A stretch of 64,000 bases of DNA from Notolepis coatsorum (taxonomy: Eukaryota; Chordata; Actinopteri; Aulopiformes; Paralepididae). Below are positions 12,501 to 33,500 of the stretch, one piece after another. The notes below the pieces were generated by a model, which saw nothing but the letters and a program-made list of their open reading frames with translations, was not told the DNA's origin and made no database searches. Where the stretch lies: contig OZ020592.1 in NCBI GenBank assembly GCA_963971535.1, forward strand, positions 130,486,163 to 130,550,162, in the 5' to 3' direction. How positions within the stretch are numbered: the first letter of the stretch is position 1; each line of letters begins with the position of its first letter. A program made the position numbers and the translations under genes.

Positions 12501-15500
12501 AGTGTAACTAATTGTCAGAAATTGGTTTTAAGCCATAAATATTGGATCCGATTTTCTTTTCAATAAAAAACTGCATTTGACGGCCAGGTAGCGCAGCGGA
12601 CTAAGCGTCTGTCTACCACCGCAGAAACACTGGTATCGAATCCGGCTGTCAGCAGTGCCTCCGGCTTGGCCGGTCGTCATACTGACACAATTGGCAGTGT
12701 CAGCGGGTGGGAAGCCGGTGGGTGGTATCCTGTGGAAGCATGTGATAGACTTCAGGGCTCCCTAGACCGGCATGTAGGGGGCAAATGCACGCAACGACCA
12801 GGAAGTGGAGGGGGGAATTGGCATAATGACTAAATTGAATTAAAAGTGAATTGTATCCTTTTAAATGCCCTTTTAAAATGGAAAACAGTGCTTAGAAAAG
12901 TACTTGAAAGTCTGTGGGAACCCTGAAGAGCAAATGATAAATTAACGTTTATTTGGTCATGACAACTACAGAATAATCAATCGTAAGAATCAGGATTTGT
13001 GCACAAGCTGATCTTTCTGAAACAGCTTTGATCTTCATCTTTCAAAAACCACCTGGATCTAGGTCGGCTTTGCAGATCCTGCACAAGGTGTGCGAGGTGT
13101 CCCGCAGGTACAACTACTTCCCCGGGGGGATGACCCTCACCTGGACCGGCTACTACGAGAGCTGCATCACCTCGGAGCAGACCTGCGTCAACGAGTGGAA
13201 CGCCATGAAAGACCTGGAGACCACGCGGCCCGACTCGCCCACCATATATGTCGAGAAGTCAGTGAATAGAAATACTTCATCACACTTCTTTGCGAAACAG
13301 GAGCGCTGATCTAGGATCACTGCTCAGGTCTCGTGACCGTACAGACCTCACCGTGACTTACAAGCCAATCTGATCTCAGGCCAGCACTCCTATACTTTGA
13401 GATGTTTGGTAAATGCAGGCACAGATCTGTAGAAGAGTACAATGTAAAGTCTATGCTAGTCTTACACTGGCTGTTGAAAGAGGCTGAAATAGGGCTGCAA
13501 CGATTCAGTCAAACAATAAGTAAATTCTCATTATTTTGGCAAAGATTTGATGCATAGTAAAAACCTCTATATATACAGTATATACATTATACTATGTAAT
13601 ATAAATTGATAATAATGAATGAATAGTGAATTTCAATTTTACAGACCAATTCAGTAGGATTTCCACATATGATACATTAGTTGTATTAATATTGAAATAA
13701 TAGTTATATAATAATAGCAAATACATTATTATGATAAACAAATGTGTTGTGTGTGAATTCGGTTGATTCTAGTGAGACTTTTATCTTTGGCAGGCCTTCA
13801 GAGAGTGAGATGACAAAGTGCCTTATCAAAACTAAACTTAGAAGCATCATGATGTGCCAAGATCTAGAGAACGTCACTTCTAAACAGGTAAATAACAACA
13901 AACACACTGTAAGAGGAAGCCGCTTCTTTACCTACTTTGTATCACTTAGTTTTCATTTCAAGTTTCAAGTTTGTTTTTTATTAGTCAGAACAAAATACAG
14001 GATACATTATAATGAAATGCTTGTTTCTGTATGAGCCCCTGAGAGTGTGCTACGTACAATAAAGATAATGTAAGTAAAAAATTAAGAAGTAAAAAGTAGG
14101 TGTGGAGAGTCACAGCCACGTGACCCCGCAATTGCCATCTCGTCCCCCCGTACAGACGCTATTAGGACAGTGGAAAGTGACCGACCAGGATGACAGAGGC
14201 CGTGTTGAAGTGCCACGAAGTGACCCTTTTTGTATTTTGACATCCTGTTCTCTCTCTCTGACTTGTGTCCCTTGTATGATGTAATATATTAAGCATTATA
14301 AAGGATTAAATATAAGTATGTATTATAAGCTTGATAACAGGACGAGTAGGCCTCTGATATGACGGATGTCTTTTTGTATTCTTATATAACCTGTATAAAT
14401 ATATACACTATAACTATACTACAGTTAATGGAATATACACTAAAGAATGGAAAGAAAAAAAAACCTTTTGATAATGAAGGGTGGGTGAGGAATGTGCGCT
14501 TCCCTCCACGACCTTGAAGGCCTGCGAGAAGGGAATGTGCACGGTTAATCCTTTGCAGTCCTGAGGCAGAGGGAGAACCTATGTATAATGTTTTACACAT
14601 GTATGTGTATGGTATATGTCTGTATTGTACATGTATATATATATATAGGCGTACAGGCTATTCCAATTGAAAGCCGGGACCCGTGTAGAGGCAGATGGAA
14701 TTCTAAGGGCTTTCCACAGCCATAAGTAATCTGTTACTTCTCCAGTAAATGTAACGACTAGAAAGGGAGGAGTTCATCCTTACTGAGTGTGTTATGTGTT
14801 ATGCGTTGATTGGATGGTAGAAATGTCATCACTGTATTTAGACCAATAAGTAAGAGGTCTTGTTATGATGCCGGACCGGTATATAAGTGACTGCTCCAGT
14901 CTCGTCGATTCAGATTTTCATTTTTAGCGTCAGATACTGTTGAGCGTTGTATGGAACAGAATCTGTCTATTTTTCAGAGTGGAGTCCCTAGGACAAAGCT
15001 TTGTTTTTTAGAGGCTATGCTATGCTAAGAGAGAGATGCTTTGTTTTATACTTACTTTTACTGAATTGGACATTTCCAATGCAGTCTCTTTGTAACTTGC
15101 TTTTTCTAATTAAAACAACTTTGTTATAATACCTATTGAATTTGTGGACTGCTTTCTATCGCAATGTGTCACGACGCTGGCCTCGCCCTGCTCTCATCTG
15201 AGGTAAAACGGTATAGCTATATTCTGGAAGCCATGCAGATTGAATCAATTGCTGGTTACTGCTTTTCAGCTAAAGTTATATAAAGGATATAATATATATG
15301 TATACTATTGACAGTAGTAATGCTTAGTTTCACTGTTTGTTGTTTGCAAGCGCCGGTAGCCACTGTGTTCGACGGGCTCCATTGGGTTTGTGGGAAACTG
15401 AGAGTCTCGCCACTGCAGGGCCGGACGATCGGTGGCCACGGATTGATGGACCTGTCGAACTGATAAGGGGCTATGGGGCTTGCAAATGATTGTTAGTGTT

Positions 15501-30500: not shown

Positions 30501-33500
30501 TTTCCTGACAGTAACTATTTGGTAGGTTACACCCGTACCAACCATATCAGCTGCATGAGATGTACACAGCGCCTATGGATAAAAATTGAGACTCTGCAAA
30601 CTCTCATCAAGCTTAGCACCTTGACGCGGGGGGACAGAGCGAGCATCAGGGTCTCTATATCCGACGGGCCTATCAGATTTGTGGGGACTTGGAAGCTTCA
30701 GCATACAGGACGCTGTGGTGCTTAGGCGGCCAAGTCACTGGTTTATAGGTCTGTCAAAACGGATCGGAGGTTCTGGGGCTTAGAACATCCGTGAGTTGGG
30801 CTTTATACTAATTGAATAGGTAATAACAGCCAAGAGAATATGAACTTAATTGACTGCTGTCAGGTGCCTCTGGAGTAAAATTTATTACAGATTTGAGTTA
30901 AAACCTTACTCAAGATTGGTCTTATCAGCAAGCAAACCTCTCCAACCAAGACTCCTCCTAAATGCTAGAGATCTGGAACAATGAGTGACGTAGAGGTCTG
31001 CAAAGCGCAGCAGACAGCCTAAGAGGTAAAAAATCTATCAGGAACAAGAGAGGGTTGATAAGAAACCACTTGAAGTGGCGTTTACTTGCGACTAACAGGT
31101 CTAGGGAGCCTTAAAGTCACTTGAACTTGAAGTAACCAAATGCTTACTTAAAGTCAGAACTTAAGTAGAAAACTCTACGAGTCTACAGCAGGCTAACTAG
31201 CCAGTGCTAACAGATGATGACAGCAGGCTAATGAGCCAGTGCTAACAGATCATAACAGCAGGCTAATGAGCCAGTGCTAACAGATGATGACAGCAGGCTA
31301 ACGAGCCAGTGCTAACAGATCATAACAGCAGGCTAACGAGCCAGTGCTAACAGATCATAACAGCAGGCTAACGAGCCAGTGCTAACGGATGATAACGGCA
31401 GCGCTAACTAGCCAGTGCTAACAGATGATAACAGCAGGCTAATGAGCCAGTGCTAACAGATCATAACAGCAGGCTAATGAGCCAGTGCTAACAGATGATG
31501 ACAGCAGGCTAACAAGCCAGTGCTAACAGATCATAACAGCAGGCTAACGAGCCAGTGCTAACAGATCATAACAGCAGGCTAACGAGCCAGTGCTAACGGA
31601 TGATAGCGGCAGGCTAACTAGCCAGTGCTAACAGATGATGACAGCAGGCTAACTAGCCATTGCTAACAGGAGCTAATAGCAGGCTAACTAGCCATTGCTA
31701 ACAGGAGCTAATAGCAGGCTAACTAGCCATTGCTAACAAGAGCTAATAGCAGGCTAACTAGCCATTGCTAACAGGGCCTGGACCCAAGTTACAGGGCGAC
31801 GAGAGCCCTGAATGGACCTGAAGGAGAGAAAAGAAATTAGTCCTCTGTGGACTGTATCTGTGATGTCCTGCGTGGCAGGGTCACACAACCAGGCCAACCA
31901 CACTTCAATAGAGGACTGCTGCTACAATTCTCGGGGACCCGTGGTCGCCCGAGAAGTGACAATTGAACCTACCTCAAACTACGGCAGAGATCCAAGAGGT
32001 CAGAGGGGGTGACCATAAGAACTATGACATTGTGTTCTTCAGACGACAACAACCGGGTGCATTGGCCGGGAACAACAGATGCAAGTCGTCCCGCCGGCTA
32101 CCAAGCAACGACGTGGCCCCTATCCTGTCGGGCCGTCCAGCCAGGGAACAACAGATGCAAGTCTTCCCGCCGGCTACCAAGCAACGACGTGGCCCCTATC
32201 CTGTCGGGCTGTCCAGCCAGGGAACAACAGATGCAAGTCTTCCCGCCGGCTACCAAGCAACGACGTGCCCCCTATCCTGTCGGGCCGTCCAGCCAGGGAA
32301 CAACAGATGCAAGTCTTCCCGCCGGCTACCAGGGTACCAGGGAACCAAGATGACAGAGGGGGTGTGGAGAGTCACAGCCACGTGACCCCGCAATTGCCAT
32401 CTCGTCCCCCCGTACAGACGCTATTAGGACAGTGGAAAGTGACCGACCAGGATGACAGAGGCTGTGTTGAAGTGCCACGAAGTGACCCTTTTTGTATTTT
32501 GACATCCTGTTCTCTCTCTCTGACTTGTGTCCCTTGTATGATGTAATATATTAAGCATTATAAAGGATTAAATATAAGTATGTATTATAAGCTTGATAAC
32601 AGGACGAGTAGGCCTCTGATATGACGGATGTCTTTTTGTATTCTTATATAACCTGTATAAATATATACACTATAACTATACTACAGTTAATGGAATATAC
32701 ACTAAAGAATGGAAAGGAAAAAAAAGTTTGATAATGAAGGGTGGGTGAGGAATGTGCGCTTCCCTCCACGACCTTGAAGGCCTGCGAGAAGGGAATGTGC
32801 ACAGTTAATCCTGAGGCAGAGGGAGAACCTATGTATAATGTTTTACACATGTATGTGTATGGTATATGTCTGTATTGTACATGTATAAATATATATCTGT
32901 ATATATATATATATATATATATATATATATATATATATATATATATATATATATATATATATATATAGGCGTACAGGCTATTCCAATTGAAAGCCGGGAC
33001 CTGTGTAGAGGCAGATGGAATTCTAGGGGCTTAACACAGCCATAAGTAATCTGTTACTTCTCCAGTAAATGTAACAACTAGAAAGGGAGGAGTTCATCCT
33101 TACTGAGTGTGTTATGTGTTCTGCGTTGATTGGATGGTAGAAATGACATCACTGTATTTAGACCAATAAGTAAGAGGTCTTGATATGATGCTTGGTATAT
33201 AAGTGACTGCTCCAGTCTCGTCGATTCAGATTTTCATTTTTAGACTTCAGACACCATACTTATAGCGTCAGATACTGTTGAGCGTTGTATGGAACCGAAT
33301 CTGTCTATTTTTCAGAGTGGAGTCCCTAGGACAAAGCTTTGTTTTTTAGAGGCTATGCTATGCTAAGAGAGAGATGCTTTGTTTTATACTTACTTTTACT
33401 GAATTGGACATTTCCAATGCAGTCTCTTTGTAACTTGCTTTTTCTAATTAAAACAACTTTGTTATAATACCTATTGAATTCGTGGACTGCTTTCTATCGC

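What the first reader, a model, noticed from the sequence alone, without database searches (positions are those of the whole stretch)
14101..32362. LTR element whose Gag-like protein carries a macro domain
In both units the frame contains VVNPANRGLRNGGGMAKTI followed by a region (AYYRNIFRQAQDAGITSLVM, FGIGIWHYD) in the order and spacing of a macro domain: the Asn-x-x-Asn loop, the Gly loop, then the late Gly-rich phosphate loop. Macro domains bind ADP-ribose and in some positive-strand RNA viruses reverse host ADP-ribosylation. I know of no described LTR retrotransposon Gag with one. This could be a captured anti-defence function or a structural reuse.
Basis: partly seen in the sequence, partly recalled or inferred. 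Interest (0 to 1): 0.92.

Follow-up and report, generated by a model that had tools for sequence, protein, structure and literature searches.

The report
Macro domain inside foamy-like retrovirus Gag
Two broken virus copies in this window belong to a family of foamy-virus-like endogenous retroviruses whose main structural protein contains a macro domain, the fold that host cells and some RNA viruses use to read or erase ADP-ribose marks, so these viruses may have carried such a tool in their particles.

Summary
The macro domain is real. In the window it is split between two overlapping frames in both units, so each half scores below Pfam's cut-off of 22 bits (15.6-18.7). Naturally open copies in the same genome pass it (5 of 5 gag frames scanned, 33.7-39.6 bits), as do four database relatives (25.8-33.2). 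The domain lies in the first open frame (about 1305 aa). Further pieces of such copies encode a Pol closest among solved structures to entries I recall as foamy virus (266 bits; Ty3 106), then an unknown 495-aa frame and an env-like frame. So this is a foamy-like endogenous retrovirus; the window's two tandem units lack a recognisable pol. The macro stretch has the lowest dN/dS of nine Gag regions (0.17, interval overlapping several others) and keeps both ligand loops. A second foamy-like family here carries a PARP14-like macro domain in its gag frame; a relative lacks that one but keeps a degenerate macro-like domain. Macro ORFs in fish retroviruses were mentioned before; I found none described inside Gag in the library searched. 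Binding or hydrolysis is untested; no structure could be predicted.

The parts
14099..15628 (+). LTR 1 (5' end TGTGGAGAG; right end not resolved, homology to LTR 3 ends at 15628)
   Evidence: three-copy direct repeat; ends read; first 362 bases give 40 scored matches of 1936 candidates in the genome, three of them the window's own
16197..17099 (+). leader with 25-bp and 35-bp tandem repeats before the gag frame
   Evidence: families D2-D4; similar repeats before gag in other copies
17034..17417 (+). N-terminal Gag frame, unit A
   Evidence: matches open copies
17418..17726 (+). frame with the first part of the macro domain, unit A (Pfam Macro positions 1-32 at about 17535-17630)
   Evidence: E 0.0017, 18.7 bits, below cut-off 22
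17663..20758 (+). main Gag frame, unit A (Pfam Macro positions 75-113 at about 17774-17890)
   Evidence: E 0.015, 15.6 bits, below cut-off
18698..19309 (+). second, degenerate macro-like domain of Gag (tentative)
   Evidence: matching stretch of alignment A1: profile comparison score 25.7 versus at most 20.5 in 200 column shuffles; no Pfam Macro hit
20225..20734 (+). conserved C-terminal Gag region, position expected for capsid; no Pfam match
   Evidence: 50-58% identity of P0001 to P0003-P0006 in the matching stretch; Pfam negative
21060..23198 (+). stretch where pol would be expected; no frame of 100 aa or more between 20948 and 22796; 35-bp repeats; purine-rich tract AGAGGGGG just before LTR 2
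   Evidence: homology to the L010 copy ends near 21055 and pol pieces L022 and L023 give no match over 250 bases; tract read
23199..24822 (+). LTR 2, shared by both units
   Evidence: 0.3-0.4% from LTR 1 in two stretches without the microsatellite
26266..26976 (+). N-terminal Gag frame with the first part of the macro domain, unit B (about 26785-26880)
   Evidence: E 0.0072, 16.7 bits, below cut-off
26913..29219 (+). Gag frame, unit B, with the last part of the macro domain (about 27021-27140)
   Evidence: E 0.0082, 16.5 bits, below cut-off
29128..29991 (+). C-terminal Gag frame, unit B (a second frame change separates it)
32361..33966 (+). LTR 3; homology to the other LTRs stops at 33966
   Evidence: no target-site duplication recognised by eye

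Best explanation
The window holds two head-to-tail, defective units, with gag but no recognisable pol, of a foamy-like endogenous retrovirus family; they share a central LTR. In open copies of the family the long Gag carries, near its N-terminus, a macro domain that keeps both ADP-ribose-contacting loops (shown by sequence). Inferred mechanism: because the domain is part of Gag it would be present in many copies per particle and in the incoming core, where it binds ADP-ribosylated viral or host protein or nucleic acid and probably removes mono-ADP-ribose placed by antiviral PARPs of the PARP9/14 type. A second, degenerate macro-like module downstream may serve assembly or binding only, as inactive macrodomains do in host macroPARPs. 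The window copies themselves cannot make the domain in one frame and would need helper proteins in trans to move. My split: macro domain in Gag of a foamy-like ERV about 0.95; ligand binding about 0.6; hydrolase with an anti-PARP role about 0.4.
For: Pfam Macro above cut-off in 5 of 5 gag frames scanned, 33.7-39.6 bits (L012 among them carries an inserted zinc-finger array), and in 4 of 4 relatives, 25.8-33.2 bits. A profile of 5 macro pieces finds the ADP-ribose hydrolase AF1521 at 1.2e-9, then nsp3, MacroD-type and PARP14 macrodomains. Loop 1 NPANRGLRNGGG in 18 of 21 sequences looked at (2 window units, 19 loci) and loop 2 FG[TI]GIWHYD in 21 of 21; PMC10221186 (section 3.1 read) names Asn/Ser and Gly at loop 1 and hydrophobic then aromatic at loop 2 as important for activity. 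Macro region dN/dS 0.166 (bootstrap 0.084-0.29), the lowest point value of nine Gag regions, and 48-53% identity to the relatives against 18-28% in the linker. Pol nearest to PR-RT entries that I recall as foamy virus, PR-like motif LVDTG and an env-like frame with N- and C-terminal hydrophobic stretches. A second family with a PARP14-like macro domain in the gag-position frame before a Pol of the same kind.
Against: No catalytic or binding data. Loop 2 has Trp where active enzymes are said to have Tyr or Phe, and from recall it lacks the Gly that usually follows; three of the four relatives have Thr-Trp and one Gln-Trp, and their GGG is reduced to one invariant Gly. 3 of 21 copies (L004, L006, L007, one cluster on C1) have His for the second loop Asn. 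No Pfam gag domain was found in the frame, so 'Gag' rests on position, overlap with pol and length. The dN/dS interval of the macro region overlaps those of the post-macro, second-domain and capsid-position regions; the 14 copies were chosen for open frames; and the C-terminal region gave 2.4 from only 4 usable rows. The capsid-position region is as conserved between hosts (50-58%).
Confidence: 0.55

Rival explanations
1. Structural reuse: the macro fold serves Gag assembly or RNA binding and has no ADP-ribose function. Selection keeps the fold, not an active site.
For: Degenerate macro-like domains without the Asn loop seem to occur in the same protein and in the Gag-like relative P0014 of the second family; SARS-CoV macrodomains 2 and 3 bind nucleic acid, as a passage of PMC10221186 states. 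Loop 2 is atypical.
Against: The NPAN loop, Asn-175 and Gly-178 after it, and Gly-x-Trp of loop 2 are invariant in the five proteins, more than a purely structural use seems to need.
Confidence: 0.35
2. A single recent transduction of a host macro gene piece into one element lineage of this species, not a stable Gag component.
For: The second family's macro domain is close to host PARP14-like exons (profile comparison, 39% over 176 columns) and to PARP14-like proteins of other vertebrates (best E 3.5e-50), and the related P0014 lacks it.
Against: For the window's own family the domain is shared with four database relatives, 36-38% identical over 94-96%; the one of them tested, P0004, has only 41-44% matches in this genome (33 scored of 32,414 candidates). 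The family's domain was not close to the four host exons compared nor specially to solved host macrodomains.
Confidence: 0.07
3. Not a macro domain: a chance motif resemblance in an unrelated Gag.
For: Window halves alone are below Pfam's cut-off; a protein search with the macro pieces alone found nothing at E 0.001 (only proteins of similar length were candidates).
Against: Curated cut-off exceeded in 9 of 9 open gag-type proteins of the family scanned whole, alignment across the whole domain, and macrodomains or proteins designed on them fill the PDB profile list.
Confidence: 0.03

Closest known systems
[quoted passage not shown] PMC5512871, one section read and passages)
   Same: foamy-like Pol; order gag, pol, a 465-aa unknown frame (acc3), env; here gag-position frame, pol, a 495-aa unknown frame, an env-like frame of at least 1131 aa; many young copies
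   Different: the section read reports no domain in Gag and the term macro domain does not occur in the paper's held text; I had no FLERV sequences, so relationship of the genes was not tested
Macro-domain ORFs in fish epsilon-like ERVs (Basta 2009, known here only through one sentence of PMC4977317)
   Same: fish endogenous retrovirus with a macro domain
   Different: described there as additional open reading frames in epsilon-like sequences; here inside the gag-position frame of foamy-like elements; original paper not held
Viral macrodomains of coronaviruses and alphaviruses (PMC7729036 passages, PMC10221186 one section and passages)
   Same: macro fold carried by an animal virus, loops for ADP-ribose kept
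   Different: those lie in non-structural proteins (nsp3, nsP3); this one lies in the structural-protein frame of a retrovirus
Host PARP14 and PARP9 macrodomain 1
   Same: second family's macro domain is closest to it
   Different: the window family's macro domain shows no special closeness to it

Membership tests
Macro domain (PF01661) | score above the curated cut-off across the profile | tested here: met
   5 of 5 open gag frames 33.7-39.6 bits, 4 of 4 relatives 25.8-33.2; the window's halves, taken apart, do not reach it
Macro domain (PF01661) | Asn-x-x-Asn loop and following Gly loop | tested here: met
   18 of 21 sequences; Asn loop and last Gly invariant in the 5 rows
Macro domain (PF01661) | late Gly-x-Gly loop followed by hydrophobic and aromatic residues | tested here: met
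   FG[TI]GIWHYD 21 of 21; aromatic is Trp; one of four relatives has Gln before it
Macro domain (PF01661) | macro fold in three dimensions | not testable with these tools
Active ADP-ribosylhydrolase | removal of mono-ADP-ribose from a substrate | not testable with these tools
   needs purified protein
Foamy-like endogenous retrovirus (FLERV / spuma-like) | Pol closest to foamy viruses | tested here: met
   266 bits to 7kse (Peptidase A9/RT/RNase H, recalled as foamy virus) against 106 Ty3 and 102 for a gammaretroviral-type p80 RT; for the second family also PFV integrase by name; solved structures only
Foamy-like endogenous retrovirus (FLERV / spuma-like) | gag-pol-accessory-env order | tested here: inconclusive
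   order seen in pieces of two copies, but the env-like frame has no homology hit and the gag frame no Pfam gag domain
Foamy-like endogenous retrovirus (FLERV / spuma-like) | tRNA-Lys primer binding site | tested here: inconclusive
   best Lys-type match in the window has 6 mismatches of 18; LTR right end unresolved
Foamy-like endogenous retrovirus (FLERV / spuma-like) | falls in the FLERV clade of a Pol tree | not tested
   no FLERV sequences at hand
Ty3/gypsy LTR retrotransposon | Pol closest to Ty3 | tested here: not met
Fish epsilon-like ERV with macro ORF (Basta 2009) | sequence relationship to those elements | not tested
   paper not held, no sequences at hand

The most novel reading that the evidence does not exclude
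The macro fold is an old structural component of the Gag of fish foamy-like retroviruses (a macro or macro-like domain is seen in the three Gag lineages met here: window family, second family, P0014), kept as an active ADP-ribose eraser delivered in the particle in some lineages, degenerate in others, and refreshed at least once by capturing the host's own PARP14 macrodomain into Gag.
Probability: 0.3. Interest if true: 0.9.

Novelty: new variant of a known kind. Interest (0 to 1): 0.74.

Why it matters
ADP-ribosylation by antiviral PARPs is a known battleground with positive-strand RNA viruses. A macro domain built into a retroviral structural protein would put the same conflict at the entry and assembly steps of retroviruses, and a PARP14-like copy in a second family would be a direct record of a virus taking the host's own tool. 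It would also help to explain the long gag-like frames of fish foamy-like elements (their length is recalled from the 2016 teleost paper, which is not held).

Tried and rejected
Programmed frameshift inside the macro frame: rejected, since all 14 open copies used carry the domain in one frame; the split is a lesion of the window units. Ty3-type or BEL assignment of the finding: rejected (a BEL/Pao and a Ty3-type element lie elsewhere in the window). Pure tandem duplication without LTRs: disfavoured, since the repeat occurs dispersed and in several loci after the same purine tract. Relatives in IMG/VR: none confirmed with alignment A1. Protein search with macro pieces only: nothing at E 0.001. 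PHROGs for the 495-aa frame and one Gag frame: none. Rfam in the window: none at gathering scores. PBS scan: no convincing site. Target-site duplication: none recognised by eye. Macro tree: the three groups separate, but branches are long and only four host exons were in it, so it does not place the window family. Second domain as macro: profile comparison only (hhalign probability 6-18%); it does not match the family's own macro profile (E 0.21) and Pfam is negative. The second family's degenerate domain alone is weak too (E 0.018-0.086 against macro profiles holding host exons); the signal comes with P0014.
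Full report
Observation. The window carries LTR-internal-LTR-internal-LTR (repeat starts 14099, 23199, 32361). The two internal regions are almost identical (gag stretch 8 differences in 3708 aligned bases; LTR stretches without the microsatellite 0.3-0.7% apart; whole units 98.3% over 8 kb with gaps), so the array is young. The quoted peptides are there in both units, but in two overlapping frames (17418-17726 and 17663-20758; 26266-26976 and 26913-29219). Scanned apart, the halves match the two ends of Pfam Macro weakly, below its cut-off. 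The genome holding the window (G000, 3.42 Gb) has many more copies: 150 scored of 1013 candidates, many with open frames of 1305 aa. I used such naturally open copies instead of reading the broken frames through.

Macro domain. In one search I scanned six proteins: five gag frames (L010, L012, L016, L013, L017) all match Macro above the cut-off of 22 (39.6, 37.2, 39.5, 37.0, 33.7 bits); the sixth, a pol piece, does not. Against solved structures one copy finds AF1521 (E 3.6e-5), and a profile of five macro pieces finds AF1521 at 1.2e-9, followed by nsp3, MacroD-type and PARP14 macrodomains. A search of 5.8 billion proteins with the whole frame gives four hits at E 0.001 among the 7992 candidates scored, P0003-P0006, 1382-1401 aa, 36-38% identical over 94-96%, all with PF01661. 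One of them, P0004, was sought in this genome: its matches are 41-44% identical (33 scored of 32,414 candidates), so it is no copy from here. Their hosts are unnamed.

Loops. Over the two window units and 19 loci the first loop reads NPANRGLRNGGG in 18 of 21 and NPAH in 3 of 21 (L004, L006, L007, one cluster); the second reads FG[TI]GIWHYD in 21 of 21. In the relatives the GGG shrinks to one invariant Gly and the second loop is FGVG[QT]W. By the features listed in PMC10221186 (section 3.1) the window family has the pattern of active macrodomains, with Trp as the aromatic; PMC7729036 (passages) reports that N244D, G334V and F336L nearly abolished SARS-CoV-2 macrodomain activity, residues that I place at the loop Asn, the loop-2 Gly and its aromatic. 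Activity here is therefore plausible, not shown.

Selection. Of the 21 loci L001-L021 (two of them the window itself) I used 14 with long open frames. Counted by region after dropping rows under 75% identity or 80% coverage, dN/dS was: macro 0.166 (0.084-0.29; 14 rows), post-macro 0.21 (0.10-0.45; 13), second domain 0.23 (0.13-0.41; 11), capsid-position region 0.23 (0.12-0.44; 7), 921-1045 0.29 (7), N-terminus 0.35 (14), acidic/SR 0.45 (8), linker 0.57 (0.37-0.93; 10), C-terminus 2.37 (only 4 near-identical rows; not interpretable). Without the dropping the macro value was the same and most others rose, because some frames leave register. The macro interval is clear of the linker's but overlaps several others. 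Identity to P0003-P0006 is 48-53% in the macro region, 50-58% in the capsid-position region, 18-28% in the linker.

What the element is. Pieces of two open copies on C8 and C30 show: the 1305-aa frame; an overlapping frame with an LVDTG protease-like motif; then reverse transcriptase and RNase H above Pfam's cut-offs, with a second RNase H-like stretch and integrase matches just or well below theirs; a 495-aa frame without known domain, found at 86 places (86 scored of 269 candidates), 94-100% identical, 82 of 86 without an internal stop; and a frame of at least 1131 and 1148 aa in the pieces fetched, with hydrophobic stretches near residues 138-173 and 1073-1112 and 24 Cys, as an envelope would have, though without homology hits. 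The Pol's best solved relatives are 7kse and Pr125Pol entries, which I recall as foamy virus protease-reverse transcriptases (266 bits; Ty3 106; p80 RT 102). This fits the layout of ray-finned fish FLERVs in PMC5512871 (gag, pol, 465-aa acc3, env; section read). The window units match the open copies only up to about 21055, and no pol piece matches beyond. The window's LTR was not found in the flanks fetched around the C8 and C30 copies; these copies may have other LTRs, or their LTRs lie further out.

Second family and capture. A Pfam search of the genome (150 scored of 233 candidates) gives, besides copies of the window family and other macro genes, six places with 117-124 bits and frames of 785-1263 aa. 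Two of them are followed by RT, RNase H and integrase frames (L027, L029); the one compared with solved structures is closest to the same entries (263 bits) and is 33% identical to the first family's Pol. Their macro domain is closest to PARP14 (137.6 bits; PARP14-like proteins of vertebrates, best E 3.5e-50; host exons here that are themselves closest to PARP14: 39% over 176 columns). P0014, a Gag-like relative (39% over 337 residues in the C-terminal part, 24% over 211 upstream), lacks that domain but keeps the one just before it. That degenerate domain of P0014 matches Pfam Macro at 23.1 bits as a piece and 18.8 in the whole protein (cut-off 22); aligned with the second family's it matches macro profiles at 5.4e-6 to 2.2e-4 (score 42 against at most 19 in 100 column shuffles for the best), but not the window family's macro (E 0.067). 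A solved-structure search with it found nothing. The first family's residues 545-745 likewise resemble macro profiles with host exons (25.7 against at most 20.5 in 200 shuffles; other Gag regions apart from the macro domain 8.9-14.4), but not the family's own macro domain, and Pfam sees nothing there. So the three Gag lineages met here hold at least one macro or macro-like domain each, and one has gained, or its relative has lost, a PARP14-like one. The two families' Gags also share a short C-terminal motif and the macro domain by profile (E 4.6e-8).

Novelty. Ten searches of the held library, with macro domain or macrodomain and combinations of retrotransposon, gag, LTR, endogenous retrovirus, foamy, spumavirus, fish, PARP14, FLERV and the like, gave one statement that I found relevant, in PMC4977317: epsilon-like fish ERVs occasionally have additional ORFs, for example macro domain proteins. 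I opened only some of the listed papers. PMC9503650, a survey of ADP-ribose systems in viruses, has no hit for foamy, retrotranspos or LTR, and its retrovirus mentions concern 2H domains (passages); passages of PMC8672886 and PMC6001957 showed nothing on a macro domain. Basta 2009 and the teleost foamy-like ERV paper of 2016 are not held; from recall the latter notes unusually long gag-like genes. I therefore claim a new variant, not a new kind.

Limits. No fold, no biochemistry, no FLERV tree, unnamed host (contig sizes would suit a polypteriform fish, which is recall and not tested). Copy counts are of scored candidates only and are lower bounds.

Noticed in passing
L012:1268-5440 (G000:C4:32173000-32179000): A 1391-aa open frame of the same Gag family in which about 1.3 kb is replaced in frame by an array of C2H2 zinc fingers (zf-H2C2_2 100 bits; extent): a Gag-zinc-finger chimera.
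   Followed up: no
L026, L027, L029 (G000 C1 and C7): Second foamy-like family with a PARP14-like macro domain and a preceding degenerate macro-like domain in its gag-position frame.
   Followed up: yes
L023:608-2092 (-): 495-aa frame after pol, no known domain, 86 places 94-100% identical, 82 of 86 without internal stop: recent spread of the fuller copies.
   Followed up: partly
L034:607-3999 (-), L037:2-3445: Env-like frame of at least 1131-1148 aa; no Pfam match above cut-off (L034) and no convincing PDB match.
   Followed up: partly
window 35509-40861 (-): BEL/Pao-type element (Peptidase_A17, DUF5641).
   Followed up: no
window 60573-63998 (-): Ty3-type element with a chromodomain after the integrase.
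   Followed up: no
window 128-1714 (-): Reverse transcriptase frame followed by an ALKBH8_N-type stretch, by recall a non-LTR element.
   Followed up: no
window 48346-50577 (+): Two long frames (328 and 372 aa) without Pfam match at E 0.01, possibly exons of a host gene.
   Followed up: no
window 58625-59317 (-): Repetitive protein frame built of repeats such as EAWLEKELQANMEVNTRNTTQQGIQAN; only weak, scattered Pfam matches below cut-off.
   Followed up: no
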